Source of the DNA: Diplocarpon mali
Lineage: Eukaryota > Ascomycota > Leotiomycetes > Helotiales > Drepanopezizaceae
Assembly: GCA_024741835.1 (NCBI GenBank)
Contig: JAENRP010000194.1
Span: forward strand, 17,318-81,317
DNA: 64,000 nucleotides
Reading direction: 5' to 3'
This document shows, one piece after another, positions 28,631 to 59,680 of the stretch. A program made the position numbers and the translations under genes. Position 1 is the stretch's first letter. Every line of letters starts with the position of its first letter. The notes below the pieces were generated by a model that made no database searches, was not told where the DNA came from, and was given only the letters and a program-made list of their open reading frames with translations.

Positions 28631-28872
28631 TATTGCAAGTATGCCCGTCACATATTTATCATATGATCTATTATATGATATATTATATATATAATATATC
28701 ATATGACTTGCCATATGACTTAGTGGCAGCCCTTGTTAAATAGCTCGTAGTTAGAGAGCTCTTATAAATCAAGATATAAGACACCTAACATCATTGTTTG
28801 TACCTTATACTTCTTTGTACCCTCTCTTCTAGTTTACTATTAAGTTTACTATTAGAGAACCTCCTTGCTATA
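28631..28872 (+). repeat. Left LTR of Copia A
   Basis: 242 bp, starting TATTGCAAGTATGCCC and ending CTCCTTGCTATA, followed by GGTTATAAGCCCCG, a plausible primer-binding site. Confidence 0.92.
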
Positions 28873-30315
28873 GGTTATAAGCCCCGCATGCCTATAAATA
28901 GCATTCGACAAATTCCATCGATTAGAGTCTTCTTTACAAACGAAAAGGCTGATCGATATTTTGAGTTTTACTTAATTAACAATATATAATAAGCGTTATT
29001 TCAATAATAAAATAGTAGCTACTCCCCTTTTAAAGCGCTACGTAATAATCTAAGCTTATATAAGATTCGTTACTATAGCTGAATCATTAGGACTAATAGC
29101 TGAGATTACTAGCTTAATTGCTAAAAGTACTCTACTACTTAAATCACCTATTTTTAAAGGGACTAATATATAGTACCTTAAACTCGAATTCAATAGTTTA
29201 TCTCCTCCTCTTCCTCCTTCTCCTCCTTTCGATAACTCTATATATATATATACAAATAAGATATTATTATTATCTTTAGCTACCCTTAGCCTCCTTAAGT
29301 CTTAAAAGCTTAAAGGCGCAAAGGACTATAGCTAATAGAGGAATAAGGTTTTAAACCTTGCAAAGTCAAACGCCTTAACTATGCATTTCTATATAAAAGC
29401 TAGAATATATACTCCACCTAAGGTTGACTTATAGGACCGTTCTATTATACTTAAGGAAAGGGACAATTAGATTAAATAAGAAGCTAAGGAATCTTAAATA
29501 AAGTTTGCTATTATACTTAATTATAAACCAGGCCTACTAGCTTATATAAAAGGCGATAAATCTACCTTAGATATATAGAAAGCTCTTTAAAAATAGTACA
29601 AAGGATCTGGAATAGTGCTTAAATATAATGCTATCCAGACCTATATTACTATTAAATATAATAACTTTAATTCACTTAAAGCTTATATTATCGCCTTTAG
29701 ACTTTCAATTACTAAATTAGAAGCTTTCGACTTTGCCCCTCCCTCTTACTAGCACCCTATTATATTTATTACTAGCTGTTCTAATAGATGGCCTATTTAG
29801 GCAGATTGATAACGTTCTAACCTTCGCTTAGCTATAGCAGCTAGACGAAAATCAAAGATTACGCTTAAAGCTCTTATTAAAGATATTACTAATAAAGCTT
29901 AAGCCTTATAAAGTTTAAAAATAAATAGAACTATCTTATATAGTAATAAATCGGCTAGCAAGCCGTATTCCTTTAACTATAAGAAGTTAGAAAATAAAGA
30001 AGGTTTCAAAGACTTAAAGAAGAGCACCTTTAGGAATACTATTACCTTTCCTAACTCCTCCTATCCTTATTGCAAGCAACCAGAGCTATATCATAAGGCA
30101 GAAGATTGCTTTGCAATTAATAAATCGAAAAGAGAGACTTAAAAGAAGGATTCAAGGAAGAAGTACGTATTCTATTACCTTAAAGGTAAGGACGATAAGT
30201 CTTTGCTATTATTATTACCAAAAGGTAAGAAGCCTTTTAAGAAGATTCAAAAGGAAGACGAAGAGTCAGATAATGATCTCTTTAGGCATACTATGCTATT
30301 ACTAACCCTAGGGCC

Positions 30316-30417
30316 AATTCTCACTCGCGAGCCAGGCCTAGGAGTCAATTCCTTACTAAGAGGCGATTCTTCTTTAAGACCGATTTCCACTCGCAGGCCA
30401 GGACCAGGAGTCAGTTC
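30316..30417. repeat. Palindromic 35-bp units, copies 1-2 (reverse orientation)
   Basis: Units at 30316-30350 and 30382-30417 within the Gag-protease region of Copia A. Both carry the core in the orientation ACTCGCGAGCCAGGCCTAGG or similar. They are translated in frame as TREPGLGV and TRRPGPGV, inside an open frame (30203-30457). Confidence 0.85.
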
Positions 30418-31795
30418 TTTTACCTCTTGCTTCTTATTAAAATTAAGGAATCGTTAGCTATATAATATAAGTGCTAATAAGCATATTTCCAATAATCTCT
30501 TTAAGTTCACTTCTTATACTACTTAAGACAATCTACCCTCTTTAAGTACAGTTAATAGATCTATTCAACCTCTTAGCGTTAGTACTTGCAAAGTTAATAC
30601 ACTTAAATCTAATAGAAAGGTATATATTCTTAAGTTAATTAATACTTTCTATATACCTTAATCATCTATCTGCCTATACTTAAATAGTAAACTTAATAAA
30701 ATCAAAGGTTTCTATCGAAATAGTAAGCTATTCCTATCTAATAAAAAGGAAATTTGCACTATCGATAATAATATATATATTAATAAGGAATAGCCTTTTA
30801 CTAATTCCTTTAATTATATAAGTGGATATGCTCTCTTAGCTGCAATCGAGAATGGACCTCTTAATATTAAGCTCTAGTACTATCGATTAGGCTATGCTAG
30901 CTTATAAATAGTTAAAAAGACCCAATTTGCTATTACTAATATGCAAATCAAGGAAACGAAATTAAGGAAGATGCGAATTTACGCTCCTTGCGAGAAAGGC
31001 AGACCTCTTTAATATATTAATAAACGTTTAGCTCGCCCTCGACCTACAAAGGCACTTAACGAATTATATATTAATATAGTTCATCTAAAGCCAATTAGCC
31101 TTAACGGTTATAAATACGCTTCCATCTTTACTTGCGTAGCTATAATAGCTAAGTAGGGATAGACTTATATAAATAAATCTAATACCTTTAAAGCAAATAA
31201 GAAGATAATCAGCCTCTTATAAACTTAGTATAATTGTATAATCAAGCGTTAGAGAACTAATAAAGGCAAGGAGTACTCTCCTATATAAATGTAAATACTT
31301 ATAGAAAACCTTAGCATAATTTTAAAGGAATCTACTCTATATACGCCAGAATAAGATAGCAGATCGGAATAATCAATTTGCATACTAATAGAAAATTTAC
31401 AAATAGCTATAATTAACTAAAATATCCCCTCCTTTCTTTAGCCTTACCTCTTTCTTTCGATAATATATATCACTAATCTTACTGCCTTTAATATTCTTAA
31501 TAGCAAGACTCCATATAAGGTCTTTTAGGATAATATCGAGCCTAATAAGCCTTATACTCCTTTAGTTAAGTATCTTCGAGTACTAGGCTATCGCGTCTAT
31601 ATATTAATTAAGAAAGAAAGGCAAACTAAAAGTAATAAACTCACTTTAAGAGCAAAGGTAGGTACTCTTATTAGATTTAATAGTAGAAGTATCTATCAAA
31701 TCTATATATTATTATAAATAAGTGAAAAGATTATTCGATTATCTTACGTTCGATTTGATAAAGACGGCCTAATTATAGAGCCGCAATTAAAAGGT

Positions 31796-31929
31796 GATTT
31801 CACTCTTAGGCTAGGACCGCGAGTCAATTCTGACTCTTATGATTTCACTCCTAGGCCGGGACCGTAAGTCAATTCTGACTCTTATAATAATAATAATTTT
31901 ACTCCTAGGCTAGGACCGCGAGTCGATTC
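31796..31929. repeat. Palindromic 35-bp units, copies 3-5 (forward)
   Basis: Units 31796-31830, 31841-31875 and 31895-31929, with starts 45 and 54 bp apart (multiples of three). They sit in the linker between the integrase and reverse transcriptase regions of Copia A and translate as FTLRLGPRV, FTPRPGP-stop-V and FTPRLGPRV. Confidence 0.9.
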
Positions 31930-33104
31930 AAAAGAAGCTAATAAAGTTAAGCTTCTAACTCTAAGAAAGAGAGGAAGACCTCTTAGTTTAAAGAACAAGG
32001 CTTACCCTTAGCCTTTTAAGAAGAGAGCTACTCGCTTTACTGCTTTTAGATTCAAAGCTAATAACTCTAATAATAAGGAAGCCTATTTAAGCGCCTTCCA
32101 TATAGTCTTACTTAACTCTCTATACCTAAATGACCTAAAAACAGTCGAATAAGCCCTCTCTTATACTAATGCTAATAAATGGCAATCTATAATCAACTTT
32201 AAGTACAATTCCCTTGCTTATAAGAACATATAGGTAGTAGTAAAACGCTTAGAACTCTTTAAAGACGATAGAGTACTTAGATCAAGGCTTATCTTTAAAA
32301 TTAAAAGAGACTAAAATAGGGAAATCTCCTAATAGAAGGTCAGATTCGTTATATAAGGCTATATGCAATAATAAGGTCGAGATTATAACTAGACTTTTGC
32401 TAAAGTATGCAAATCTGCGGTTTAAAAGATCGCAATTGCGCTTGCAGCGCTATATAACTTTAAGCTAGATCAGTTCGATATTAAAATAGCTTTCCTTAAT
32501 TCAAAAGCTGACTTTAATATCTATATCAAATTACCTCTTAAATACACTTAAGATAAGGTTGTTCTTTTACCTTAAGAATACTATCTTAAGCTTCTTAAGG
32601 CCTTATATAGCTTAAAGCAATCTTTATAACTATAGTAATAAAAGCTATAGTTTAAGTTGCAAAAGCTCGATTTTCAACCTCTCGATACTAATAATTGCAT
32701 ATATATCAACTGCGCCTCTTAGATTCTTATTGTCACCTATATCGACAACTTCCTTATAGTAGCTAAGAAAGGTAATATATATAATAAGTTCAAAAGAGAT
32801 CTTTGCAACCTCTTTAAGATTATAGGTAGCGAACCGGCTAACTACTTCTTAAGAGTACGTATAGTCAGAGATCGATAAAATAGAACAATCTTACTTTATT
32901 AAGATGCTTATATTAATAAGGTTCTTAAACGTTTTCATATAACTAATTGCAAGAGCGTACTAACTCCTTTTACTAATAGCTATAAAGTTCATATAATCAA
33001 ATTTAAAGGCTAAGCCACTCTATAGGAAGTAAAGCTATATTAAAAGATCTATAGTTCTTTATAGTACCTTACGCATTATACGCGTTAGGATATACTATAC
33101 TACT

Positions 33105-33358
33105 TATTACGGCCGCATTACGTACACGGTTATGTCACGTGTTAGTCAGGTGTACGAAGTCAGGTGCCCGCTAAGGTAGCAAGGTGGCTAGATCATATGC
33201 ACGCTAGTAAAGCACCTGTACTTATTCTAAAAGAGCTCTACTAGAGACCTCTCTTCTTCTTTATCTTTTCTTCTTAATTATATAGCGTACCTCTTAAGGT
33301 AATACAATTAGCATTATTCGATTCTCGCCTTTTATACGCTTAAGAGCGAGTTATAATA
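33105..33358 (+). repeat. Left LTR of Gypsy B
   Basis: 254 bp starting TATTACGGCCGCATTACG and ending GAGTTATAATA; pairs with 40003-40256. Confidence 0.92.
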
Positions 33359-34411
33359 TAAGAAAAGATCAATTCAACCTTTATTAAGAAGCTTAATATC
33401 TACTACCTTTAGAATCATTATTTCAAACTACCTTAAGTAACTTGATCTTTCGATCTCAACTTCTATTACAAATTGCCTTAAGCAACTTATACGTAGCGCC
33501 TAGATCTTACTAATTTAGTTTTTAAAGAAAGCTGAAAAACGACCTTCAAATATAAGATCAGCTCATTTTTTCGACCTCTTACCTCTTCTATTTGGCAAAT
33601 AGAGATTTACCTTTAATTTCAATTCGAAAAAATTTTATTTACTATACCTTTGCTTTGCTAGCGTAGGCTGCTACCTAAAGCGGTATAATAGCTTTTCTCT
33701 TCTTAACTTTCTCCCTCCCTTATAAATAACTCTATACCACTCTTTTTTTTTTATTAACCTTATACTTGTTGACAACTCTCCTTATACTCTTCGAAGCTCC
33801 TTACTCCTTCTTTCGAAACCCTTGAATATAACTCGACTCTTTAAAGACACCTCCTTGCGAATATATTATCGACCTTCTCTATACTTCCCGTCGACTTATA
33901 CTTGTCGACCTATACTTATCAACTCTTCCTTATACTCTTTGAAGCTCTTTACTCTTTCCTTCGAATACTTAGGTACGAAACTAAAGGACCTATACCTATA
34001 TATATATATAAAGACTTAGTTAGCCTTAGTAGGTTATACTATACTATTAGAGACTAGGTTAACTTTAGTAAAGTAATAAGCTTTAGATTCCTAGACCTTA
34101 CTTTCCCAGATTTGCACTATACCCTTAAGCAACCTTATTATAATTCCTAATTAGTAAAGAGAAGTGATCCTAAAGTAAAACCTTCTTTTTTAAGATCTAT
34201 AAACCTACAATACTTTAATATATACTTTATTAAAAGGCTTTAAGAATATATATAGCTCTGCCTATACTAATCTTCCCCCTTTTAAATAAGTTACTATTTA
34301 GCATTAGGTCCTTTTAGATTAAACTAGATAATATAGAAAGAGTTAGTACTTATAACCTCTAATCTTATACTACTTAAGAGAAGTAAAAGGTTAACCGCAC
34401 CTCTACTACTG

Positions 34412-34474
34412 GGCCTTACTGCCACCAGTTCTATAGGCCTTACTGCCACTAGTTCTATAGGCCTTACTGCCAAC
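34412..34474 (+). repeat. 24-bp tandem repeat in Gypsy B Gag
   Basis: Two near-identical 24-bp units and part of a third, beginning GGCCTTACTGCCACCAGTTC. Each encodes eight residues (GLTATSSI). Confidence 0.85.
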
Positions 34475-34534
34475 CCTAGTCCTAGAGATATTCCCTCTCC
34501 TAAGCCTACTTAGGAAGAAACCTCCCTTAGTACC

Positions 34535-34569
34535 GATTTCACTCCTAGGCCTAGACTATAAGTGGATTC
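34535..34569 (+). repeat. Palindromic 35-bp unit, copy 6 (forward)
   Basis: Single unit in the Gag region of Gypsy B with core ACTCCTAGGCCTAGACTATA. In-frame translation FTPRPRL, then a RIP-type stop. Confidence 0.85.
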
Positions 34570-36309
34570 TTAAAATACTCCCCTTCTATCGATTAAAGTT
34601 AAGGAAGAATTGACATCTACTCTTACTATATCGGCCCCTCTCTTTTTAGCTACTTAATAGGCTAAAATCGCAAACCTCGTTAGCGCTGCTATAGCCGCTG
34701 CTCTTTAAAATAATACTACTGCCCCTTCTTCCTTAAGTGCTAGCCCTTAGAATACTCAGTCCTTTACCGCCGACTTACTACCTTCCTTAGACTACTACCT
34801 CTTAATTATTAGACCTTTAGTCCTAGCTATCGACCCTTATTAAATCAAGTACCCTTAAACCCATTTTAATAACCACTAGGGCAAAATTACCTATAATACT
34901 TAAAAGATAGCTATAAAGGTATTTATTTAAAAGTACTTAAGTAACTTCACTTTAAAAAAGGACTAAATCACTGCCTACTTTAAGTATATAATAAGTAAAG
35001 CTTAGAACCTAATCTTATAATATATAGATCCTATCTTTACTAATAAGTTTATATACGCTACTAATATCCTTAAGGTCTTAGATTAAAGGTTCTTTAACTA
35101 TAATTATATTTAATCCGCTAAGCTTAAATATAGCAGGCTAACTATAGGTTTATTATTATATAATAAGTTCTAATCCAAGTTCATTACCCTTGCTATAATT
35201 AGAAAGATCGATTAGTCTTACTAGTTTGATAACATTTATAAAAAGGTCTCCTTAGCCTTAAAGAACAACCTTTAAGTAGAAAAGTATAAAATGAATAATA
35301 ATTATATTACTTTAAATAAGTTCTTAGCTATTACAGACCGCAAGGCCTATAATATTAAGTAAAAAGAGGCTTATAATGCTTAACAAGTCGCTCCTACTAT
35401 TATATTCTCTCCTTTAAAGGACCGCGTCCTTAGCATATTAAAAAGGGAGTTATAAAGACCTACTGCTATAGCTACCTCCTTAGCTTCTTATACTTATTCC
35501 CCCTTACCAGCGACTTATTAAGAAAGGTCTACTAGCCTAAAGCTGTTATCTAATCTCTGCTATAACTATAGAGCCCTTAGTCACTATACGATAAACTACC
35601 TAAAGCTAAAGAAGCAAGGCAAGTTTATAATAGCTAAAGTTAAGATAGAAAACAACCTACTATTAGGAAACTGCTAAGCTATAGCAAAGACTCCTATTAT
35701 AGTATAAGTTATAATTTGTAAAAAGACTTAGATTTTGATTCCTACCTATTAATAGGCGGCTGCCAATTCTTAATTCCTATAGAACTAGCTTAAAATAGAT
35801 CATTTATTAAAATAGTTACTTATATTAATAATAGAGCTAATATTTTCAATATTATTAAGACATCTTTAGCATACTAGCTCTCTTAAAGACTTAAGGTAAA
35901 GTTTATTAAACTACCTAAATTAATTACTCCTATTAGCTATAATAGCCTTAAAGGAGAAACTATTCGATTTGCTATCTTACTTACCCTTATAATCAATAGG
36001 CGATAAATAAACTTCCCTTTCTTAATCATAAGCTTAAGAGCAACCGACATTTTAATTAATAGGAAGTTCCTAAAGTACTATAACCTTAAATAGTCCTATA
36101 AAAGGGGAAAAAACAGCATCTCTTAGCTTAAGGATATGCCTATTATCTTCTACTTTAATTAATACGTATTAATCGATCTCTTATAACTAATAAAACCCTT
36201 AATAGCCTAGTAAGACATCGATTATTAAGCAGCTATAATAGACGCTAAGGACAAAGACCTTAGAATAGCCTAAGCCTAGCTCTTAGTGCTAGCAAGCACT
36301 AACGCCTCG

Positions 36310-36389
36310 AATTCCACTCCTAGTCCTGGCCTATAAGTGAAATCTGCGAACTCGAATTCTACTCCTAGTCCTAGCCCGCGAGTAAAATC
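36310..36389 (+). repeat. Palindromic 35-bp units, copies 7-8 (forward)
   Basis: Units 36310-36344 and 36355-36389, 45 bp apart, in the protease-reverse transcriptase linker of Gypsy B. They translate as NSTPSPGL-stop-V and NSTPSPSPRV. A truncated third start (CGATTCCTACTCCTA) follows at about 36398-36412. Confidence 0.9.
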
Positions 36390-38271
36390 TACTAATTCGA
36401 TTCCTACTCCTATAGCCTTTTATAAACCTAAGGATAGTAGTTTCTTTAAAGATTTAAAAAGAGATCTGAACTATATAAAGAAGGCTTTGCTAAGAGTATT
36501 AGACCCCTTGCTCCCTCTCTTAATAAAGAAGAACGCTACTTTAAAGCTAGCTTACTAGATTAGCCTAATCTTAGCTTTAATAATCAGCGCCCTTTACTAC
36601 CGCTTTATAACTAAGGTAAGATAAGCTATATAAACTTAAGAACTAGCGCTTAAAGAGTTTATATTCGTAAGCTCTATTTATAATCTAGACTAAGAAATCA
36701 ATTGCTAAGAATCGGTTAGATAAGCTAAAATTAGCTCTCTTAGCCTTAGTTCGGCGCTATAAGCTAAGTATAAAAGTAATAATAAGCTAATAGACTAAAA
36801 GCTCCTGCCTTAGTATACTAAGTTTAAGAATATCTTTAATCGCTAAGCCTTTAATCAATTGCTAGAACTTAAGCTAAGGGTAGATTATAAAATCGAGCTA
36901 ATAAGCGAGAACAATTTAATAATCGAACCCTTTTGCCGCTTTACTAATAAATAGCTCTTAAAGGTCAAGAGCTATATTCTTAAGAACCTATATAAAGGAT
37001 TTATCGAAGCTTTAAGTTCCCCTTAGGTAGCCCTAATCCTCTTTATTAAAAAAGCTAATAGCTCCTTACGTCTATATATTAACTACTAGAAACTAAACGC
37101 CTTAATAAAGAAAGACCCCTACCCGATTCCCCTTATTAATAAGATAATAGCATATATATTAAAAGCTTGTGTTTTTATAAAAATCGATATATAATAAGCC
37201 TTCTACTATATCCGCATATTAGCTGATACTAAGGACCTAACTACCTTTTACACACGCTATAGGACCTATAAGTATAAGGTTTTACTATTTAAGCTGATAA
37301 ATAAGCCTATTACCTTTTAAAGGTTTATTAATAATATTCTCCTTAAGCACCTTAACGATTTCTACTCTGCTTACTTAAATGATATTCTAATTTACTTAGA
37401 AAACTCCTTTAATTATAAGATTTATATTAAGAAGATCTTAGGAATTCTTTAATACTATAGCCTTTAAGTAGATATTAAGAAAAGCGAGTTTAAGGTTATT
37501 AAGACTAAGTTCTTAAGGTTTATTATTAGAGTTTATAGAATTAAAGTAGACCTTAATAAGGTCTTAGTCATTTAGGAGTAGAAATATACTAAGAATGTAC
37601 ACAGTATATAAAGCTTCTTAAGGTTCTGTAACTTCTATTAAAGGTTTATTTAAAGCTATAGTTATATCTGCCGACCCTTAATAGCTTTTATAAGAAATAT
37701 TCCTTTTGATTTTAATAACGCTTATAAGGAAGCTTAAGAAGCTCTGCGCTTAAAGCTCTAAACGACCCTGATTTTATACTACTATTACCCTTAGAAGTAG
37801 ATAAGGCTTAAGACCAACGCCTCCGATAGCATAGTCGCTAGCGTACTCTCTTAACTCTAGGAAGACGAGAACTACCACCTAATTAGGTACTTCTTAAAGA
37901 TAATAAATAACACTAAGCTAAATTACCCTATTTATAATAAAGAGCTCTTAGCAATTTTTAAATCGTTCTACTAGTATAAGGCAAAGCTACTTAAGGCCTA
38001 GAAAATAGTATATATATATATAGATCATAAGGCCCTTAAGTACTTTATAACAACTAAGGACTTAATAGCTTAGTAGGCTTGCTAGGCAGAGTTCTTTGCT
38101 AATTTCAACTTCCTTATTATATACTAAATAAGTATAATAAATACGCTAGCTAATACACTCTTACATCAAGACTAAGAGCTAACCCCTCTTAAGGCCAGGA
38201 AACAAGCTTTACGCCACTAGTAGCTCTTACCTAATAATAAGCTCTCTATAGAAGTACTCGCCACTAGAGGC

Positions 38272-38351
38272 GATTCTACTCCTAGGCCCGGCCTACGAGT
38301 AACTTTAGCGCAGATCGATTCTACTCTTAGGCCTAGCCTACGAGTAACAAC
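38272..38351 (+). repeat. Palindromic 35-bp units, copies 10-11 (forward)
   Basis: Units 38272-38306 and 38317-38351, 45 bp apart, between RNase H and integrase of Gypsy B. The first is the best palindrome: arms ACTCCTAGGCC and GGCCTACGAGT around one base, with a single mismatched pair. They translate as DSTPRPGLRV and DSTLRPSLRV. Confidence 0.92.
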
Positions 38352-40002
38352 TGTACCAATCGCGCTAATAAAGGCACTTGCCGACCTAACGTCTAAGGTC
38401 GAGTACGATATAGCAAGCTACTATATTATTAATAAGGTCATTTAAGCTAATAAGACCTCCTTTAAGCTATAGAAGTTCTAAGATAAGGCGCAGAGCTATA
38501 GCCTCGATTATAAACTCAGCTAAGGCAAACTTTTCTTTTAAAGTAGACTTATCGTACTATCTTAACCTCCCGAATTGCAAATAGCCTTAATTTATTATAT
38601 ATATAAGCAACCTTGCGTCGCATATACTAGAATCGGGAAAACAAGGCTTCTAATAGGAAGAAAATACTATTAGAAAAGTCTTAGTAGCAATATTAGCACT
38701 TATATTTAAAACTATTATTATTTGAAAATGAAAGCTTATTATAATAAGACCCTAGGTTTCTTATAACCCTTGCCAATTCCTAAATAAGCTTACTAACACT
38801 TGATAATGGATTTTATAAAGCTTCTACTTAATAAACTCAGTTATAATTTTACCTTTATAATTATCGATAGGTTATTAAAGAAGGCAGTTTCGATTCTATA
38901 CTATAATTCGATCGATGCAAAAGGCCTTATAAAGTTGTTTTTAGTTCATTAGATATACTATTTTAGCATACCCGACTCGATTCTATTAGATAGAGGCGCC
39001 TAATTCGTCTCTTCCTTTTAAAAAGAATTCTATCAGATACTAAGTATAAAGGTCAAGCTAATTATAGCTTATAACCCTAATATCAATAGCTAAACTAAGA
39101 TTATAAACCAATACTTAAAATAACGCCTTAGACTATTCTACTTATACTATTAAGACAATTGGAGTCGTCTCTTGCCTTTAATAGATATTGCCTAATTGAC
39201 TTTACCTTATAAATCCCTAGGGCAAATTTCCCCTTTCTAAGTGCTAAACAGCTATAAAGCTCGCTCCTCTTAGAATTTAATTAACCTAAAACCTTTATAA
39301 ATAGCAAATAAAAGAGTAAATCGTAAAACAGCGCTTTATATAGCTATTAGAGCTTAAAAAGTAGTCTAATTCGCTTAATTGTCTCTTTAAGTATAATAAG
39401 CTAAAATGAAACGGCTTGCAGATCTTTACTACTAGCTAATTAATTAGACTATAAGAGATAATATGCTAATTAGTATTAAAAATTAGAAACTGGACCGGCC
39501 GAGCCGAAAGCTCTCTAATAAGTAGTATAGCTTAATAAAAGTATTAGAAAAGCTAAGAGAAAGCTAAAAGCTATAATTGCTTAATTTACTTTATTCGATC
39601 TACCCTATATTCTACTCCTACTTATTGCGAAAATACGTTCTTAACCCTTTGCTAGGCTAAGCTTAGGAACCTCCTACTCTAATTAAAATATTACTAGAAT
39701 AAGAGAAATAGGAGATAGAAGAAATAATTGGATCTTATATTTAAGTTAGGAAGCTCGAATATCAGATTAAGTGGAAAGGAGCTAATAAAGACCTCGAATA
39801 ATACCTATACTCTAATGCTATAATAATGCCGCATGCTATTCGAGACTTCTATTTAAAAAACCCTTAAGCTAAGAGGCTACTAAGGGCGCTATTAAGCTGG
39901 CTTAGGTTATATAATAATAGAATTGACGATTATAGGGACCTAGAGGACAATACGCTTATAGATACAACTGCGCAGGCGTAGTTTTTTAAAGAGGAGGGGT
40001 AG

Positions 40003-40256
40003 TATTATAGCCGCATTATATATACGGTTATATTACGTATTAGTTAGGTATACGAAGTCAGGTGCCTGCTAAGGTAGCAAGGTGGCTGGATTATATATAT
40101 ACTAGTGAAGCACTTGTACTTATTCTAGAAGAGCTTTACTAAAGACCTCTCTTCTTCTTCATCTTTTCTTCTCAATTACATAGCGTACCTCTTAAGGCAA
40201 TATAGTCAGCGTCATTCGATTCTCGCCTTCTGTACGCTCGAGAGCGAGTCGTAACA
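40003..40256 (+). repeat. Right LTR of Gypsy B
   Basis: 254 bp starting TATTATAGCCGCATTATA and ending GAGTCGTAACA. It is less degraded in its right half than the left copy. Confidence 0.92.
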
Positions 40257-40367
40257 CTACTACTCCATTCTTAGCAAATTCCTTACTAACCCTTTGCTAT
40301 AATATATAGCAGCTTCAAAACGAGTTTTACAATACTTATAAGGAATGCGATTCTATTATACTACTTT

Positions 40368-40666
40368 TATAGGTTCTATACCGGTAATTGATATTTATAT
40401 GAATATAGTTAAGTACTTATTATTAAAAAGAATCTATTATAATGTCTATCTATCTTTATATAACTGAGATAGTACCTTTATACCTTTAAATGTCCTCCCT
40501 CTTATAGTCCCTCTTAGCTGCATATGAATATCCTTCTAAGGTCCTCCGGCTGAATAGCCGTTTGAAATGCATATAAAACCCCTTATATTATATATAGTAT
40601 AACTATATAGGATGACCTTAGGAACAAGGGCAAGTTGCCTCTTATATAGGAATCTGCGTACTAATA
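40368..40666 (-). repeat. 3' LTR of Copia C
   Basis: 299 bp; plus-strand ends TATAGGTTC and GCGTACTAATA. More heavily RIP-mutated than its partner. Confidence 0.92.
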
Positions 40667-42599
40667 CTAGTAGTACTCTCTTTTAAAAAGACCTTTTTAA
40701 CTTATATAAGGAAGTACGTAGAATAGGTATATAAAGGAGGTAGATTGGTAGCAAATAATTAAATGGTAATAAAGAATAAAATAGTAAAGATAAATAGCTT
40801 AATAGTAAAGGTAAATGTAATAGGTAGTAAGGATAGTATATAAAAAGTAGAATAGTAAAGATAAAGGCAAATAGTAAAGAGGGAAAGGAAAGGTATTTAA
40901 ATAATAGAAGTAATCTAAAGTCTTTATTTAAGCCTTATAGTAGTGCGATTATAGTCCGGTTGCATTCTAATAGGTTCGAGACTCTTTATTAAAGAGTCAT
41001 CTGGAGTTATAATCTACTATAGCTATAAATTATAATAATTTATAGAAGGGAAAAGAAGGGCCTTTAAGAAGGTATATATATTGAGCTTTCCTCCTCCTTT
41101 GATCTTTTAACTCTAACTCCTACTTTTTATAAGTAGGTCGATTCCTCCTCTTGCTTTTAAGTTAATTAACCTTATAGTAGATCTTATCTCATATTATTCT
41201 ATTAATACTATTATTATTATTAGTAAGTGTTTTAATTATTAGCTAACCCCTTCTAATATATATATCGCTAACTTAGATAGTACTTAAATGCAATCTAGAA
41301 GACCTGCCTAAGGCGTTTTAGGTGCTTTGCGTATATTATACGCAAGTGATATTAAGAAAGGAGGCTAGTAAGAATAATACTAGCTATATATATATATTTA
41401 ATACTCTTACTTTTAAGAAGTATGACTATTGTATTACGTAGTAGGTAAAGTATATTTTAGTAAGTGCCTTTTAATATCCTCTTACTTTAATAACCTCTAA
41501 TAGATGTCTATTTTAGATACTTATCTAGGCTTAGGATAAGTATATTATTCTTTAGGATGCTCGGGTTAGTAGTAATATTAAAGTAATCTAAGAGGCGGCC
41601 CAAATCCTATTTAAAAAGACTTAGATATAAATCTCTATAGTTTTAAAGACTTAGGATGCCCTTTAGCTAGCTTAGCTAAACGAAGCTTATGCCCTCTATT
41701 ATAGTATCAACCTTACGAATACCTAGTAGGCTATAAGTGCCCTTAAATCCATTTGATATTAATAATTAACTGTTTATAAGATCTATTACGCGCTATTTAA
41801 GGCGGTAATACTACCCTTAGGCATCTTAAGACTTAAGGCGCTAAGGTACTTAGCGCCCTTTAATATATAAAGGGGTTATTTAGCTCAGCTAAAGGCTATT
41901 CTTAGGCTCCCTTTAATAATATCTGCTGCTAAAAATGTAAGGGCAGATAGGTGCCTTTTAAGGGCTCTTTAAAGGGTAAGGATCTGGATCTCAATAATTT
42001 AAATAAGCTAAATCTAAAGGAGATCGCGGCCGCTCTTGCTTAAGTGCAAGCTTAAGAGGAGCGGGCCAACTTAGCCGCTGCTTTAAGTAGTAAGGCTTCT
42101 AGGCCTTAGGGGTTTAGAGATCTACGCTTTAGAAATCCTAGTGCTTAAGATAGGTGCTTATTAAGGGTAGAATTATTAGTAGATTATTATTTTTAATAAT
42201 ATAATAATTGCTGCTTTACTATAACCTCCTTCTTTAGTACTGCTTAAGTGATAAAAAAAATGCAAATATGCGCAGGTAAGTAAGAAAAGATAAAAAGAAG
42301 GTAGTAATAGCAAGTATAGGAATATAGTAAGAAAAGATAAAAAAGAAGGTAGTAATAGTAAGTGTAGGAATATATCTTATAGTAAAATAAAAAAATAAAA
42401 AAATTGCTAATAGCTTGCAATTAAAAATATCGGATATTATTAATCTAAGACCTTTTTAAGTCTAGTTATACCCTAATAAGCCTTTGTACCTATCTCTCCT
42501 TTCTAATAGTTATCGAATTAGTATCTACTAGTTGCTAAAGGGCCTGATTTGGATTGGCTTTTGTTATAGCGTTAGTAGGGTTGCTAGCGCTATCGATTT

Positions 42600-45500
42600 A
42601 ATATATCTTTATAAGCTTCTTATTCTTATATGATTATCGAATAGCCATTATATCGATTATCAATCGCTTCTCCTTTATAGTACCTAATTTGATAATACAC
42701 TTATATAAGGAGAGGGAATCTGTATATATAATAGTAGGGAGGTAGGGTAAACTTAGCTTAGCTGTTACTATATCGATTGTTATAGCTATAGAAACCAGCA
42801 TATTAATACCTGCTACTATAGTATACAATTCGGAGGCTAGTATAGCTCTTGTTACTCTCTTACACTTTGTTAAGCTATAGTATAGAATATTGCCTTTTAA
42901 AGTAAATTGCGATTCTCTTTCCTCTTTAGTAGCTAGTACGATAATATAGCCGATCTGCGAGCTTAAATCCTTATTATTAGTAAAAGATCCATCGATAAAT
43001 ATGAATAGTTTAGTATTTTACAAATTGATAGTAAGGTAGGTCAGGCCTCTTTCGAGGTTGTTTCAGATTCACTTAAGTCGCTTATTCAGATTCTTTGCAT
43101 CTTAAACTATTAGATCCTAGTATTAGACTATAGCTAATAAATCGAAGGAAGCTTCTGGCTAGTAGATTGTAGCTAAATAAGCTCCTTTTGCTCTTTGCTT
43201 TAGGTATTATTACTTATAGCCCTCTTAAGAAGTATCGACTAGTTCTAGCCTTTAGCCTTGGCCCTTTTATCGCATATATACTATATCCCCTTCTTAGGAA
43301 ATAATATACTTATTGAAAGCTAGTGATTTAGTGCTCGATAGGTATTATATTAGCTTTGTAAGGAATCCTACCCTTTTGATCTTATCCTCCTCCTTTTTTA
43401 AGAAGTCTACTTCTCCAAGTATTAAAGTGTTATCTATTTGTATTCCTATTATGCTAAAAAAGGGAGAAGTGCTTAAGGTTAATAATAGATAAGGGTCATA
43501 AGTTGAGTTGGCTATATTAAGATTGCTGCAATAGTGCTTATAGTAGGTATTAAACTAGTGATTTCCTAATTCGGGAATACTATAGAGTAGTAGTACCACT
43601 TTAAAGATTATACTTATAGGGAATAGCTTAGCGATATCTTATAAGGGAAATATAAATATATCGCGTAATAGCTTTAAAGCTACTTAGGTATATACTTATA
43701 TAATATCCTATAGGCTGAGAATGCCCTTCTTGCCTTATTCTTTAAAGTGTTCCTGGACTAATACTAAAAGGCATACTAAAAGGCGTTGGCTTACTTATTA
43801 GATCATTAGAGATTAGGTGATTATACCTTCCTCCTTCTTACTAGTATTATTCTAGGCTTATATAATTAGGTGTGATTTCTTAAATAGGTGATCTATCTCC
43901 TTTCCCTTTATCTTATCAACTATTCTTAATTTGAAGATCCTTTTGCCTTTTATAGTAAGGTTATTTTTATTTATTAATATAAATACCCCTTTGTTTATTA
44001 GCCTTTAGTACTCCTTTAAGCGAGATTGTTAGAAAGGGCGCCTAGGAGTAGTGATCTTGCCTTTTGCCTATAGCTTTTGCGACAGTTCTTGGTCCTTATT
44101 CTCCTTCTCTATTAGGAATACCTCTGATTTAGCCATATATAACTTATCATCTGCTTTAAAGGATATCTATATCTTAGCATTATAATTGTTATTAATTATA
44201 AGAAGACTGGAAATAGGCTTAACAAAGGGAACCTCTACTCTTGGCGATTGCTTGTAGCTATTAAGTTGCAGCTTAATTAAGTGAGAGGGCTCTACTTCTT
44301 TATTAATATTAGTTGCGTTCTACTCCCTTTTAGTAGTCGTTTGATCCTTAGGTTTAGTTCCTTTAGTTTCCTCTAAGTAGTTTTCTTTATTATCGATTTT
44401 AAATAGATGTACGCTTATCGATTTAAAGTACTTTATTCTGCCACCGATATTGACTATATAGGTTTCGTTCTCTAAGCCTAGGAACTCGAATAGGCCTATC
44501 TATCCTCCCTTCTCTTAATATACTAATATTAGGTCTTTTAGCCTTAAATCGTAGATATAAGTGGTTCTAGGGCCATTCCTTATACTTAAAGCGTTATTAA
44601 CCTTGCGAGTAGTATAGATCTTTCTAACTTCCTTTATAGCCTTTTTAATTATTACTATCCTTTATTCTACTAATGGATTTAATAGATCTAGTTTAGTTAG
44701 CTTTAGATATACTTTGAAAATGAGTAAGGTAGGAATTATCTTATTAGGTCCTATTATATTATTGACTGCTTTAATAGCTATTTGTAGCCTTTTATTATCG
44801 CTTAATCGGGGGTGTTTAACTATTATTATTTTAAAGGTATATCTTAAAGGGTAATAATACTATTCGACCTTGCTAATAGAGTGGTGCGCCTTTATAGGAA
44901 TTAGCTTAAGGGTTATTCCTATAGATCTTAGAGAGCTTTTGAACTCTACTAAGTTGAAGTTAGTGCTATAGTTGTATACTATAAAATTAGGAGGTCTAAT
45001 ATATATATTTAGCTAAGCTAATTTAAGGGCTTAAAATATTGCATTAGCCGAATATGCTCCTATTCCCTTCTATAAAAACCTTATAGCTTTAAATCCTATC
45101 GCTTTATCAACTATATAAAAGGCGTTCCTTCTACCGAATTAAGTAATATTGATATATATAGTATGATTGAAGTTAATATTATCTTATAGCTTAAATCGGA
45201 ATCTATAAGGGGCGTTGGCGTGGAGTTGGTAGTATTGGTATATTTTCCTTACTCTTGCTATAATACTGGAGTTTATATTATAACTAGCCTAGTTTAAGAG
45301 GTATTTAAGGTACTTTATCAAAAGATATCCGAATCTTTTATATAGCCTTTGGATCTCTATTTCTATTAAGTGGTATATATTAATTATACCTTTTAAAGTT
45401 ATTAGAAGTTGCTCTATTATATTAAGTAAGAGCTATAGGTACTTGTGTTTTTTAATAATTAAGTATTTCTCCTTACTAATGATAAGTAAATTATATAGAT

Positions 45501-47900
45501 TGTCATATTTAGCTCCTATTTTATTAAGTTATTATAAGCAGACTAAAAATAGTATATCTGCCTTTATAATTAAGAACTCTATAAGGCCTACTGGTATTCG
45601 AATAGTTGTTTTGCTGATTATATCTCACAAACCTACCCTAAAGGTAATTTTGTGCTTTTCAGCGCTAAGTGGAGTTAGAACTGCGTCTTATATATTTTGT
45701 AAGACTTTAAATTAGTTGATTTCTCTTATATTTTTATTTAAAGCGCTTATATTAATTAGGAATCCTTAAAAGAACTGATCCGTCTACTAGGTTATAAATA
45801 CCTTAGGGTCTATTTATATAGGTTTATTAACCCTTATTATTAAAAGGTATTTAGCCTTTTGCTTTTCAAGCTGGTTAAGCATAGTTCTTAAGCCATACTC
45901 CTTCTTAAAAGCTAGGAATACTATAGTGAAGTTGATATTACTATCCTTAGGGTTGCTAATTGCTTAGTCCTCCTCTTTTAAAGACATTTCCTATTTATCC
46001 TTATTGGTTCTATTGCCTTTTGAATATACTCTATTATCTTCTTAAGCTAGGTATGCCTTATATGTTTTATCTATTAGCTTATACCCTTCAGCTTATCGGC
46101 TTGCTATATAGCGAGACTTCTAGGCAGCTCTTTCTTCTTCTAAGTGCTTACTACTATAGCAGTCCTTTTTCTAATATATAATATACCTTATATAGCTTGG
46201 TTTCAGTTAGAAGGTTATTCCTCTCTTATTACCTTAGGTAAACTTTATCTTTCTATTTGAAAAGTGCGCTATAGATTGCCCTTACTCTTTAGCTAAATGA
46301 TATTAGGGTCTATTAGTAGCTAAACTAAGGTGCTAGGATCTAGATAGTCTATCCTAGGTAACTACTTTTGCGCAAGCTTATAAGCTATTCAATAGGGCTG
46401 GGAATATTGCTAATGGCTTAAAAAGTGCTATTTGGAAGAGCTGATTCTTAGAAATACCTTATATAAGTCTATCTTTAATCGATCGATCGTTCCTTATACT
46501 AGTATATAGGCCTAATTGCAAGTTCTATAGCTCTTTAGTATAGTTTTTAAGTTGGGTTAGGATTAGTTTCCCCTTCTAATAGTCTTCTTATTAGAATAGG
46601 TTAAATATTAGTTGAAACCACTTCCTTAAGAATTTGCTACTTCTCTCTTCGGTCTTGTAATTAGCCCGAATGGCCTCTACTAGCTTGGCAAACTTGAAGT
46701 TCTTATTTTATAAGTACTAATAATAGTATATTGAGGCCGAGTCTTATAGTATAAATAGAAAGGCTTTATATTATATGCTTTAGTCTATTAAGGCTCTTTA
46801 GTATAAATTGGTAAATATATAAAGCTTTTCATTAAGGTGATCTTTCCTGCTTAAGTATTAAGTCTCCTTAGTATATATCTTATTTAGATTTATAAGGGTT
46901 TTGGCCTAATTTGAAGTTAAAGGTTCTATAATATACTAGGATAGTTAAGCGTCGCTTTAGTTAAGGTTTAGAAGCGCTCTTAAACCCCTCTTTATAGTAA
47001 AGGGTAGTAATGATTTGTCTCTTAATTAGATCGGTAGTATTAGTATTGGATTTAAGATCTCCAGGTATTACAAGACTAAGGTTCGCCTTAATTAGGATTG
47101 ATAAGGTATTCTTTTAAAGTTATACTATTTGGTTATTTGTCTTAAAGTGTCCGCTTTATATAGGTTATCTTATAAAGTATTATTATTATATCTAAGGTAT
47201 CCTTGCTAAAGCGAGTCTTAGCGTACTATCTCTTATTTAGCTATAGTAACCCTTTAAGCGGGTGGCTTACTTATTCGTATAGATTTAGCAAATTCTAAGG
47301 TAGACCTTATTTTATATCTTAGAGATTGTACTATAACCGAGTTCGGTACTTCTTAGGTTTATGACTTTAGCTGGTCTTTTGGCCACTTATTTCCTTCTTA
47401 GTATACTATATTGAAAAGTGCTTAGCTAATTGAAACGCCCTTCTTATATTAAACGTATACTCTATAGTACTAAAGGTTGTCCTTTAGGTGTTATCGAATA
47501 TCCTTATTTAGCGATTTAAAGTCGCTAACTATCCAATCTTAGAACTCCTCTTAAAAGTCTTTAGCGAGATATAACCCTCTCCTTTTGCTATCTTATAATA
47601 TCTTTTGGAAGTTCTTTATATATTGATCTTTTAGTCTAAGGGCCTTTTCGCTAGGTTGATCCTTTTAAGGTCTTGTATCTCTTTCGAGGTCTTTTAATAT
47701 CTAGGGTTACCTTAGATTAAGTGGTATTAATAGTCCTCTTTTAATTATTTCTTAATATTATCTAGATATTGCTTTATGCTCTAATAGGGTTTGAAAGAAG
47801 TCTAATATAGTTGTATTTTACATATTATTATGCTATTATCTAGTTATAGTTAGGATACCGATTGCACTTCGGTTTTGCCTTAATTGTAATATATAATAGA
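42600..47900 (-). pseudogene. Copia C polyprotein remnant
   Basis: On the minus strand, the RNase H region is open for 64 codons at 42634-42828, reading YTIVAGINMLVSIAITIDIV and IYTDSLSLYKCIIKLGTIKE, a typical fungal Copia RNase H with its TDS active-site context. Upstream, near 43385-43460, the polymerase block reads IGIQIDNTLILGEVDF, the family's DD motif with one Asp changed to Asn. Around 43960-44040 an RT start reads ESRLKE-like then NKGVFILINKNNL. Stops of RIP type are frequent. The left limit of Gag is not resolved. Confidence 0.8.
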
Positions 47901-48122
47901 ACGTAGGTAGAAGAGGATAGTATCTACCTTTAAAGTAATAACTTTAGCTAGATTTGCGTACCTTTCGCCTTTTTCCCTTTGGTAGTAATTGATATTACTT
48001 TATATATTTAGATTAGTATTTAAAGTAAGCTGGAAATATAATTAAATACTTTTTAAAATTAAGAAAGAATTCTTTAGTTTAATAACTTTACTATCTATAG
48101 TAAAGGTGCTACTATTAATTAG

Positions 48123-48421
48123 TATAGGTTCTATACTAGTAATCGATATTTATATAAATATAGTTAAGTACTTATTATCAAAAAGAATCTATTATAATAT
48201 CTATCTATCTTTATATAATTGAGATAGTACCTTTATACCTTTAAATGTCCTTTCTCTTATAGTCCCTCTTAGCTATATATAGATATCCTTCTAAGGTCCT
48301 CCGGCTAAACAGCCGTCCGAAATGTATATAAAACCCCTTATATCGCATATGGTACAGCTATATGGGATGACCCCAGGAACGAGGGCAGGTTGCCTCTTGC
48401 ACAGGAATCTGCGTACCAACA
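48123..48421 (-). repeat. 5' LTR of Copia C
   Basis: 299 bp; plus-strand ends TATAGGTTC and GCGTACCAACA, retaining the original CA end. Confidence 0.92.
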
Positions 48422-48945
48422 ACTTTCAAAAGCAAAACAACTGACCTAGAGCTTTAGAAATTGCACAGCTACTGCGATTCTAATTAGGCAGGCGACAAAG
48501 GAACTAAGGCCTTTTATTCTAGGGCCGTCTTCTTCCTTAATAATAGCGTAATTACCGCCTCCTTTAAGCGATAGACTATTATCGCTCTCTTATCTATAGA
48601 AGCAGAGTATATTGCTATATGCAAATTCGCATAAGAGGCCTCTTAAATACGCTAAGTACTTAAGGAAATAGGCTATACTAGCGATAATACTACTAAAGTT
48701 AAGATGATCTATAATAACTAAAGAGCCCTTTATCTTATTAAAAACCCCAAATATCATTAAAGAACAAAGCATATTAATATCAAGTTCCATTATATTCGGC
48801 AAAAGCTTCGGAAAGGCCATTTGGACCTCTAGTATACTAATACTAAAGACAACGCCGCCGATAGACTTACCAAAAGCTTAAATAGCTCTAACTATACCGC
48901 CTTTATCAAATTATTAAATATAAAGGTTCTATACCTCGATTAAGG
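48422..48945 (+). pseudogene. Copia A RNase H remnant, 3' of nested elements
   Basis: Continues the Copia A frame after the two insertions: YCDSN-stop-AGDKGTKAFYS, IIALSSIEAEYIAICKFA, and NPKYHQRTKHINIKFHYIR near 48745-48805, then NTKDNAADRLTKSL. These are the hallmark Copia RNase H motifs (ALSSTEAEY, RTKHIDI). Confidence 0.9.
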
Positions 48946-49016
48946 GGTGATTTTTTTTATACCTCTATTATAAGGTGATTTTTTTTGCACTTCTATTAAG
49001 GGGTGATTTTTTTTAC
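48933..49016 (+). repeat. 28-bp tandem triplicate with poly-T
   Basis: Three consecutive 28-bp units (48933-48960, 48961-48988, 48989-49016), each ending in GGTGATTTTTTTT plus a few bases, at the 3' end of the Copia A polyprotein. The last unit runs into palindromic copy 12. Confidence 0.88.
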
Positions 49017-49044
49017 TCCTAGGCCAGGCCCGCGAGTTGATTTT
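49005..49044 (+). repeat. Palindromic unit, copy 12 (forward, expanded T tract)
   Basis: Core ACTCCTAGGCCAGGCCCGCG then AGT, with an eight-T tract in the left arm. It lies near the Copia A polyprotein end; one frame reads FFTPRPGPRVDF. Confidence 0.88.
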
Positions 49045-49214
49045 GACTTACTAAAGGGTGGATTTCCTACTCTAGAGTAGAGCGCGCTAGCGAACTCTAT
49101 TCTATTTCCTATATCTGCAGGTTGATTTTTCATACGAAACTATAGATTATAACAAAAGTTATAATATCATATATATTGCTAGCAAGTACCTTTAAAGGTC
49201 TCCCTAAAGGGGTA

Positions 49215-49456
49215 TATTGCAAGTATACCTATTATATATTTATCATATAATCTGTCATATAATATATCATATATATAATATATCATATGACTTGCCACAT
49301 GACTTAGTGGCAGCCCTTATTAAATAGCTCGTAGTTAGAGAGCTCTTATAAATCAAGACACAAGACACCTAACATCGTCGTTTGCACCTTATACTTCTTC
49401 GTGCCCTCTCTTCTAGTTTACTATCAAGTTCACTATTAGAGAACCTCCTTGCTACA
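49215..49456 (+). repeat. Right LTR of Copia A
   Basis: 242 bp, preceded by the purine run AAAGGGG; ends CTCCTTGCTACA then the GCTAG duplication. Confidence 0.92.
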
Positions 49457-49461
49457 GCTAG

Positions 49462-51706: not shown

Positions 51707-52991
51707 GAAGGGCTGTATCGAAGATTCCTGGCTGTTTCTTTCAAGCCTTGCGCTGGCGGCAAGGTGACAGAATAACGGTTATCATGTCAATAAAGCGAGG
51801 GCAGTCGAATCTAGAAATGCGACTGTACACACAAACCCTGGTCCCTCTTATCAAGTGTAAATTTCCCTATTGCAATTGCCACAAGTGTATGGGCCAACTC
51901 TGTGCAGTCCTGCCTCCTAAAGCTGTGTTGAAACGCACAAAAACCAGACCGATTTCCTCAAACCCTCTTCGCTCCTCCGAGAGGTTGGCAGCATGTGCTA
52001 TAATATTTGTCAGCCTCGTGACGCAGAAATCAAAAATGGTCTGATGTACTCCGTAGAAAGCTCTAGAAAGCAGTAAAGATCATGCATATACGCTAGATAC
52101 CCTGCGAGAGAGTTTTGGCTGAGAGACTTGGCGGGCCAGTCACTGTGTATACTTGTAACTAAAAGTCTTGGGTCTGATGTAAATCGCGTGTATAAGGCGG
52201 TACGTGGGGCATGTATGTAGCTGCTGAGGCTCGAGTAGGTAAGTAATATTCATTCCCGAGCGATGTAAGCTTCGGTGAGAACAGTCTACTTTACAAGTTT
52301 ATAATTAGAAAACGTATAACGAGGGTCAATACCTTCTTAGATGATTAAAGACTTGACAATTTAGAATATGTAGTCGGGTTTGAACAAGAAGAAACGGCTG
52401 TACTAAGCGAGGGAAGTATATTACGTACCGTTCTAAGTTCTTAAGTCTTAAAGACCTGCTTGGCTACATTGAACTACGGGGCCAAATACGATACACGCCC
52501 CTTGATGATTGCACAGCAAGCTATAGTATAGCTGAGTTTGGAGGCCAGTTATTATTACAGAAATCGAGATGCCTCATCCGTCCACAGCACTCCCCATGTT
52601 TATAACTGCCGTTGCAAACCCTCTCCAAAGAGCTATCCACAAAAACACTTGTTTTTATCTAGTTTTCGTCCACAATTACTATATACGCAGGGGAAAGGGT
52701 TTCACTTCCCCCTCAGTTACGAAATGCTTTGCAGGATAGTCACATGAAAATGCTATTCCAAAAGTTAAATAAACAGGCTAGTGATCCGAGTGGCTATCGC
52801 CCTAGATAGTACGTTGTTATCAAGCTGTTTTTATTCAGCGGTTTCTGAAATAAGAAAACCAAGAGTAAGAGATCCATGAATACATATCACAGAAAACTTC
52901 AAGGCCAATCAAGTATACGAACACAAGAGACAGGAGTACACAGTATAGTAAACAAGAGAGCATGTATACTGCCGTGTTTGCCGTATAACAG
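51707..52991. other. Spacer between the two cysteine-rich genes
   Basis: The first 130 bp (to about 51835) resembles the 3' flank of the second gene (shared CAAGCCTTGCG/CCAGCCTTGCG and GGCAGTCG-TCTAGAAA words). The remainder has no recognisable gene. Confidence 0.5.
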
Positions 52992-52999
52992 TATATAAA
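52992..52999 (+). promoter_or_regulatory. TATA box of second cysteine-rich gene
   Basis: TATATAAA, 137 bp upstream of the start codon. Confidence 0.6.
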
Positions 53000-53128
53000 C
53001 AAGCTCTCTCACTACCGACAGTTAGACAACTCAAACCTTCGCACTTTCAAATCATCATCCGACGTTTATTATCCTATATAACCGGCAATACACAACAATC
53101 TCCCATCTACTCCACGCTATTGCTCAAG

Positions 53129-57222: not shown

Positions 57223-57261
57223 TCCTCGCTTCGCTTCGCCTCGCCTCGCCTCGCTTCGCTT
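57223..57261. repeat. Pentamer satellite (TCGCY)n
   Basis: About seven consecutive TCGCT/TCGCC units after CTCC. Confidence 0.8.
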
Positions 57262-59043: not shown

Positions 59044-59099
59044 TCTCCTCCTCCTCCTCCTCCTCCTCCGCCGCCTCCTCCTCCTCCTTCTTCTTCTCC
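59044..59099. repeat. Trinucleotide CTC microsatellite
   Basis: Nearly continuous CTC/CCG/TTC triplets over 56 bp. Confidence 0.9.
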
Positions 59100-59612: not shown

Positions 59613-59680
59613 ACCATCCATAGCAGACCACCATCCATAGCAGACCACCATCCATAGCAGACCACCATCCATAGCAGACC
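59613..59680. repeat. 17-bp minisatellite, four perfect copies
   Basis: Unit ACCATCCATAGCAGACC repeated exactly four times, with partial copies on each side. Confidence 0.95.

What the first reader, a model, noticed from the sequence alone, without database searches (positions are those of the whole stretch)
30316..49044. A coding palindromic repeat shared in frame by unrelated Copia and Gypsy retrotransposons
Seen: at least eleven full copies of a 35-bp unit (30316, 30382, 31796, 31841, 31895, 34535, 36310, 36355, 38272, 38317, 49005) plus one truncated copy. The core is a hairpin: arms ACTCCTAGGCC / GGCCTACGAGT around one base with one mismatched pair in the best copy. Copies occur in both Copia A and Gypsy B, always at inter-domain linkers (Gag, protease-RT, integrase-RT, RNase H-integrase, polyprotein end). 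Most are in frame with the flanking pol motifs, giving TPRPGPRV in one orientation and TRRPGPGV in the other. Known: Rickettsia palindromic elements insert in frame into bacterial genes and tolerate both orientations. Inference: a small self-spreading or gene-conversion-propagated palindrome exploiting tolerant linkers in fungal retroelements, or a domesticated linker peptide with a shared function. I know of no description of such an element in fungi, but I cannot search.
Basis: partly seen in the sequence, partly recalled or inferred. Interest (0 to 1): 0.88.

Follow-up and report, generated by a model that had tools for sequence, protein, structure and literature searches.

The report
Coding palindrome spread among fungal transposons
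A short mirror-like DNA sequence has been copied thousands of times inside several unrelated mobile elements of an apple-leaf fungus, usually without breaking their proteins, which may make it a small parasite of other genomic parasites.

Summary
All 11 units are in the window; genome-wide there are 4,443+4,521 matches with up to 2 mismatches, against 25+18 for the reversed pattern. The genome is Diplocarpon coronariae or a very close relative. The unit is about 35 nt and nearly dyad-symmetric. It sits at about 24 sites in at least five repeat families: two Copia, two Gypsy, one unclassified. Of 18 coding sites with an assignable frame, 17 share one reading phase, although the un-RIPped core is open in all six frames in 37 of 37 slices. 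One site is in frame in another phase, and several copies are non-coding, among them the one at 49015, in the Copia A 3' UTR. So DNA was copied, with a peptide preference on top. I found no arm covariation, target duplication, empty site or host-gene copy in the samples examined. One metagenomic Gypsy relative has a unit-like peptide in the same linker, so the unit may be older than the species. Best reading: a DNA module passed between co-active transposons and kept where tolerated; the copying route is inferred. Nine literature searches found no description.

The parts
28631..49457 (+). Copia A retrotransposon, RIP-mutated, split by two nested elements; bounding direct repeats (LTRs) 28631-28873 and 49215-49457; Pol pieces at 29315-33103, 40255-40368 and 48419-48940
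   Evidence: tblastn of database protein P0121, direct repeats at 91% identity, Pfam RVT_2
33105..40254 (+). Gypsy B retrotransposon nested in Copia A; LTRs 33105-33356 and 40003-40254
   Evidence: tblastn of P0144 and P0001, repeats at 85%, Pfam RVT_1, RNase H and a below-cutoff rve
40368..48419 (.). element E nested in Copia A; direct repeats 40368-40664 and 48123-48419; carries no unit
   Evidence: best core match has 6 mismatches; no Pfam hit in six frames
30323..30345 (-). unit core, Copia A Gag-protease linker, in frame
30389..30411 (-). unit core, Copia A Gag-protease linker, in frame
31802..31824 (+). unit core, Copia A integrase-RT linker, first of an array, in frame
31847..31869 (+). 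unit core, Copia A integrase-RT linker, second of an array, in frame
31901..31923 (+). unit core, Copia A integrase-RT linker, third of an array, in frame
34541..34563 (+). unit core, Gypsy B N-terminal Gag region, in frame
36316..36338 (+). unit core, Gypsy B linker before RT, in frame
36361..36383 (+). unit core, Gypsy B linker before RT, in frame
38278..38300 (+). unit core, Gypsy B RNase H-integrase linker, in frame
38323..38345 (+). unit core, Gypsy B RNase H-integrase linker, in frame
49015..49037 (+). unit core, Copia A 3' UTR between the stop codon and the 3' LTR; non-coding

Best explanation
Shown: a roughly 35-nt, nearly dyad-symmetric DNA unit exists in thousands of copies in the repeats of a Diplocarpon coronariae genome. 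It was copied as DNA to about 24 sites in at least five unrelated repeat families, and at the sites tested it was there before the family multiplied and was RIP-mutated. The coding copies whose frame can be read are in frame, 17 of 18 sites in one phase, at linkers where the domains are known; others lie outside coding sequence, near 3' ends. Inferred: the unit is a hitchhiker on transposon replication. Copies pass between different transposon RNAs or cDNAs made in the same cell, for example by template switching of reverse transcriptase at the palindrome, or by gene conversion, and multiply when the receiving family transposes. Insertions that break the polyprotein are lost. That leaves linkers and 3' ends, and favours the phase that gives a flexible Pro/Gly peptide (T-P/R-G-P-G-P-R/G-V).
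For: Genome-wide excess over controls. At least five families with unrelated flanks. Gypsy B and Gypsy C both have a unit in the RNase H-integrase linker, but in different reading phases and with different flanks, so these are separate insertions, and the peptide is not what was transferred. Non-coding copies: Copia A 3' UTR, element D 3' end, three Copia C 3' units spaced 61 and 64-66 bases, hence in different frames. Silent positions fixed: with every third position open, 118 places matched, and all 50 listed have T at position 3 and A at position 21, while position 9 is only G or T and 15 only C or A. The same alternatives at 9 and 15 segregate within two unrelated sites, Copia A integrase-RT and Gypsy B gag, which fits exchange between units. 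Length changes in the Copia A linkers are nearly all multiples of three. All 77 slices lie in repeats (L059 by eye).
Against: No copying event was seen: no empty site and no target duplication. Arms do not covary, and only 2 of 6 natural units fold clearly better than shuffles as single-stranded DNA, so a hairpin role is unproven. Units are less polymorphic within sites than their flanks (15 of 552 against 55 of 1040 positions, P 0.02), which does not favour frequent exchange. Third-position variation and the phase bias also fit peptide selection. Element D is not shown to be a retroelement. Metagenomic relative P0003 carries a unit-like peptide in the same linker, so that site at least may be old and inherited.
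Confidence: 0.42

Rival explanations
1. A shared linker peptide. T-P-G-P-G-P-R-V between domains does something useful (flexible spacer, or a processing or binding site in the polyprotein), and the coding module spread by recombination between elements because of that.
For: 17 of 18 assignable coding sites use one phase although the un-RIPped core is open in six frames in 37 of 37 slices (P 9.6e-8). Purine/pyrimidine variation falls mainly on third positions. In LTR elements the units sit at domain boundaries. P0003, a metagenomic Gypsy at 60% identity, has ADLTREPGARVES in the RNase H-integrase linker, profile score 25.8 against at most 16.3 in 690 shuffled and 11.1 in 138 reversed proteins.
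Against: One coding site is in another phase and gives TRLAVLARES. Units occur in 3' UTRs. Third positions 3 and 21 are fixed, which peptide selection does not explain. The two orientations give different peptides.
Confidence: 0.33
2. A stand-alone miniature transposon in the manner of Rickettsia palindromic elements or MITEs, mobilised by an unknown enzyme, with insertions in host genes purged or missed.
For: Small, palindromic, dispersed, in frame in proteins, no preference for one family.
Against: No target duplication, no empty site, and none of 77 slices in a host gene. At 35 nt it is shorter than RPEs of about 150 bp (PMC10969869).
Confidence: 0.15
3. Vertical inheritance: the unit was part of a common ancestor of the families, or the resemblance is chance.
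For: Gypsy B and Gypsy C both carry a unit in the RNase H-integrase linker, and P0003 has a unit-like peptide there, so for that one site in the Gypsy B lineage descent is plausible.
Against: Those two Gypsy units are in different phases. Copia, Gypsy and element D units have unrelated flanks. In 29 of the 30 proteins from other sources aligned at that linker I see no convincing unit. Chance is excluded by controls.
Confidence: 0.05

Closest known systems
Rickettsia palindromic elements (RPE; seen through passages of the review PMC10969869)
   Same: One palindromic DNA unit inserted in frame into unrelated protein-coding genes, where it encodes a peptide.
   Different: RPEs are about 150 bp, of ten families, in bacterial metabolic genes; this unit is about 35 nt, in fungal nuclear transposons, and was not seen in host genes in the sample.
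Yeast mitochondrial GC clusters, such as GC42 (PMC4478555, passages)
   Same: Short GC-rich palindrome of similar size, dispersed in an AT-rich background, with merging and shuffling of copies.
   Different: Mitochondrial, with constrained stems and an AG target site; here nuclear, with no arm covariation and no target site found.
Palindromic repeats in Fusarium mitochondrial genomes (PMC7218506, passages)
   Same: Short putatively mobile palindromes in a filamentous ascomycete.
   Different: Mitochondrial; no link to transposon genes in what I read.
PARCEL repeats (PMC2996958, abstract and outline)
   Same: Palindromic DNA encoding repeated peptides, in some taxa in ORFs associated with mobile elements.
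   Different: 25-residue amphipathic domains in variable-number tandem arrays, often in proteins with membrane-targeting sequences.
Coding palindromes of nematomorph mitochondria (PMC6649704, start of abstract in a listing)
   Same: Inverted repeats inside protein-coding genes of a eukaryote.
   Different: Perfect, up to 284 bp, mitochondrial.

Membership tests
Rickettsia palindromic element | one palindromic DNA family dispersed in unrelated contexts | tested here: met
   about 24 sites in at least five repeat families
Rickettsia palindromic element | in-frame insertion into coding genes | tested here: met
   18 of 18 sites with an assignable frame are in frame, 17 in one phase; the genes are transposon genes
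Rickettsia palindromic element | presence in cellular (host) genes | tested here: inconclusive
   none in 77 slices, out of thousands of copies
Rickettsia palindromic element | length of about 150 bp | tested here: not met
   35 conserved positions
MITE | target-site duplication | tested here: not met
   no convincing direct repeat at any of 21 shifts; best z 2.4 exact, 1.3 at the same shift in purine/pyrimidine code
MITE | mobilised by a transposase of a related autonomous transposon | not testable with these tools
   no enzyme is linked to the unit; the whole genome could not be scanned with scripts
Mitochondrial GC cluster | short GC-rich dispersed palindrome | tested here: met
Mitochondrial GC cluster | lies in mitochondrial DNA | tested here: not met
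   lies in nuclear-type LTR retrotransposons on many contigs
Mitochondrial GC cluster | base-paired stem under constraint | tested here: inconclusive
   arms highly conserved, but pairing no better than with shuffled partners; 2 of 6 units fold with z below -3

The most novel reading that the evidence does not exclude
A hyperparasitic sequence of about 35 nt that lives only inside other transposons, moves between unrelated families during their reverse transcription, and has its dyad centred on a third codon position, so that it gives a Pro/Gly linker in either orientation and harms its carriers least.
Probability: 0.28. Interest if true: 0.9.

Novelty: new variant of a known kind. Interest (0 to 1): 0.74.

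Why it matters
If the hitchhiker reading is right, this is a further tier of genome parasitism: a sequence with no enzyme of its own that lives on the traffic between co-active transposons. Each unit would then mark a past transfer between Copia and Gypsy lineages, which would make such exchange measurable. It would also show how in-frame insertion is selected in mobile genes, a situation described so far, in what I found, for Rickettsia and for mitochondria.

Tried and rejected
Chance: rejected by Markov and reversed-pattern controls. Long intact ORFs: in the 200 kb of islands plus the window, none of 220 aa or more contained a unit, because of RIP-type stops. TGA-free stretches as a coding test do not discriminate, since RIP removes TG; frames were taken instead from Pfam hits, database proteins and stop counts. 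Hairpin covariation: no signal. Target duplication: not convincing (a first run failed). Unit more variable than its flanks: searches were spoiled by mixed orientation and ungapped flanks; the better test shows the unit to be less variable, 15 of 552 against 55 of 1040. Apparent unit-free copies were offset shifts or chance matches when printed. Classifying element D by Pfam and PDB: nothing. Automatic grouping merges neighbouring array sites (24 groups, 22; one search failed), so sites were assigned by hand from the representatives.
Full report
What is in the window. The stretch is one Copia element (A), bounded by direct repeats at 28631-28873 and 49215-49457, and split by a nested Gypsy element (B, 33105-40254) and by a nested element E (40368-48419) with 297-bp direct repeats. 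E has no unit (best match 6 mismatches) and no Pfam hit in six frames. Copia A holds two inverted units in the Gag-protease linker, three in the integrase-RT linker and one in its 3' UTR. Gypsy B holds one in Gag, two before RT and two between RNase H and integrase.

Organism. Against D. coronariae database proteins, amino-acid differences that cannot be C-to-T or G-to-A changes are 16 of 884 (L019 against P0001), 16 of 1088 (window Copia against P0121), 12 of 1192 (L021 against P0121) and 14 of 949 (window Gypsy against P0001). Against the Drepanopeziza brunnea homologue P0031 they are 224 of 805. So the genome is D. coronariae (Leotiomycetes, Drepanopezizaceae) or very near it. The assembly held here (49.37 Mb, 676 contigs) matches none of the contig counts I saw in PMC11527701. 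That paper (passages) gives about 34% repeats, with 20% Copia and 6% Ty3. Words beginning 'palindrom' do not occur in its main text, nor in that of the D. rosae genome paper PMC5628827 (passages).

How many copies. The exact pattern gave 710+698 matches, the reversed pattern 0+0. With two mismatches there were 4,443+4,521, control 25+18. Near-symmetric places can match on both strands, so the number of places is at least about 4,500. In 257 Gb of prokaryotic genomes a comparable, narrower pattern hit 14 single places, in viral contigs none.

Anatomy. From 32 hand-chosen representative units, one per site or array position, mostly the least mutated copy, the conserved stretch is 35 nt: RAWTY, a free base, 11 conserved bases, a free centre, 11 conserved bases, a free base, RAWTY. 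The arms are complementary except for a usual C.C at positions 5/19. In 291 sampled copies (286 distinct places), purine/pyrimidine variation is high at positions 0, 12, 15, 24 and 27, moderate at 5 and 9, and near zero at most core positions. The scan that found them left positions 12, 15 and 18 free, so variation at 12 and 15 was not selected against; position 18 nonetheless stayed purine in 290 of 291. Because the centre is a third codon position in the common phase, third positions fall on third positions under the dyad. Read in that phase, the un-RIPped core gives TPGPGPR in 30 and TRGPGPR in 7 of 37 slices; the other strand gives TRGPGPG in 30 and TRGPGPR in 7. Pairing across the arms is no better than with shuffled partners, apart from a weak excess at 9/15 (23 against 19.3, Fisher P 0.18). 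As single-stranded DNA, two of six natural units fold clearly better than shuffles (z -3.1 and -3.6), the other four do not.

Where it sits. Five host families were recognised. Copia A and Gypsy B are in the window. Copia C (P0143) has eight units between its Pol_BBD domain and a below-cutoff pre-integrase match. Gypsy C is seen at L010:508-4674 (RNase H and H2C2 domains). Element D (L056) is an unclassified repeat with two homologous long ORFs (28% identity), no Pfam or PDB match, seven units in its low-stop frame and one near its 3' A-rich end. A further context (L071, L073, L112) resembles the 5' part of Gypsy C. I examined 77 slices: all 37 places, and 40 slices around places listed, taken in listing order from C8 to C23:187172. 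In 76 of 77 the unit's flanks are shared with another genomic place; the last, L059, looks like the Copia A integrase-RT linker by eye. The 20 ten-kilobase islands were chosen because hits lie there. A few host-gene copies among thousands would be missed by this sampling.

Reading phase. I counted as assignable the sites whose frame is fixed by a domain hit, a database protein or a low stop count: Copia A 2, Gypsy B 3, Copia C 2, Gypsy C 4, element D 7, in all 18. Seventeen put the A of ACT at the first codon position, P 9.6e-8 under equal phases. The weakest of these is the Gypsy C gag unit (L013:4272), where two frames tie in one 600-base window but the chosen one is lowest or level on both sides. 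The exception is the Gypsy C RNase H-integrase linker: the un-RIPped slice L058 reads through 73 codons without a stop as ...LKGTRLAVLARESNKR.... Not counted, because the frame is unclear or there is none: the Copia A 3' UTR unit, three Copia C 3' units (spacing 61 and 64-66), the element D 3' unit, the Gypsy C 5' context (its best frame is not the common phase), the Gypsy C C-terminal unit, and L009:6109 (open in the common phase over a short stretch). The un-RIPped core is open in six frames in 37 of 37 slices, so avoiding stops does not explain the bias.

DNA or peptide. Against a peptide-only account stand one coding site in another phase, the non-coding copies, and the silent positions. 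When all third positions were left open, 118 places matched; in all 50 listed, position 3 is T and 21 is A, while 9 is only G or T and 15 only C or A. Against a DNA-only account stand the phase bias and the third-position pattern. Within-site variation uses the same positions as between-site variation: 12 of 15 events at positions 5, 9, 12 and 15. The Copia A integrase-RT unit 1 and the Gypsy B gag unit both vary at 9 and 15. I read this as exchange between units; shared constraint would look alike, and overall units are less polymorphic within sites than their flanks (15 of 552 against 55 of 1040, P 0.02).

Relatives. I aligned 33 of the 120 Gypsy proteins listed at the RNase H-integrase linker, 3 of them from D. 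coronariae. The other 30, among them D. brunnea P0031, have length-variable linkers. A profile of D. coronariae unit peptides run over the 138 other proteins gave one clear match: P0003, a metagenomic protein at 60% identity, has ADLTREPGARVES in that very linker (score 25.8; best of 690 shuffled 16.3, best of 138 reversed 11.1). P0053 (QKSTPEPGSRRIL, Gag region) scores 21.1; P0010 and P0006 (16.3, 15.7) are at the level of the shuffles, though both lie in linkers. I could not fetch the DNA behind P0003. So the unit, or its peptide, probably occurs outside D. coronariae, and that one site may be inherited. A Copia relative at 38% identity (P0122) has no unit. A search with three tandem units found D. 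coronariae proteins only: 3 hits among 133 candidates of 820-2609 aa.

Timing. At four sites the 40 best-scoring genomic copies (of 176 to 239 first-look candidates each) run through the queried unit with small length changes only; worse-scoring copies were not seen. Unit number does vary, for example one or two units at the Copia A Gag-protease site and two or three at integrase-RT. So at these sites units were gained before the families multiplied.

Mechanism. The sampled distribution (repeats only), few sites with many copies each, and shared variants between sites fit a sequence that passes between co-expressed elements and is amplified by them. Template switching or gene conversion are candidate routes; neither is shown. 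Insertions in linkers and 3' ends are what selection on working polyproteins would leave.

Literature. Nine searches of open-licence PMC papers listed no description of this unit or of an in-frame palindrome family in fungal nuclear transposons. Subscription papers are not covered. Closest: RPEs (PMC10969869, passages), yeast GC42 (PMC4478555, passages), Fusarium mitochondrial palindromic repeats (PMC7218506, passages), PARCELs (PMC2996958, abstract and outline), nematomorph coding palindromes (PMC6649704, start of abstract in a listing).

Noticed in passing
L056:1-7000 (G000 C12:236301-243300): Element D: an abundant repeat family (239 first-look candidates) with two homologous long ORFs at 28% identity, a 3' A-rich end and no Pfam or PDB match; unclassified.
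   Followed up: partly
window 40368-48419: Element E, nested in Copia A, bounded by 297-bp direct repeats, with no Pfam hit in six frames and no unit: not every repeat family carries it.
   Followed up: partly
window 48944-49014: The Copia A 3' UTR holds tandem copies of a CTATTAAGGGGTGATTTTTTT-like motif directly before the unit (sequence printed); it resembles a repeated polypurine tract.
   Followed up: no
window 1-20000 and 52000-64000 against 28000-50000: GC 0.44-0.61 in the flanks and 0.31-0.35 in the retroelement block: a sharp boundary between gene-like and RIP-mutated compartments.
   Followed up: no
P0003 residues 830-842, P0053 residues 175-187: Unit-like peptides in metagenomic Gypsy proteins, the first in the same linker as in Gypsy B.
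   Followed up: partly
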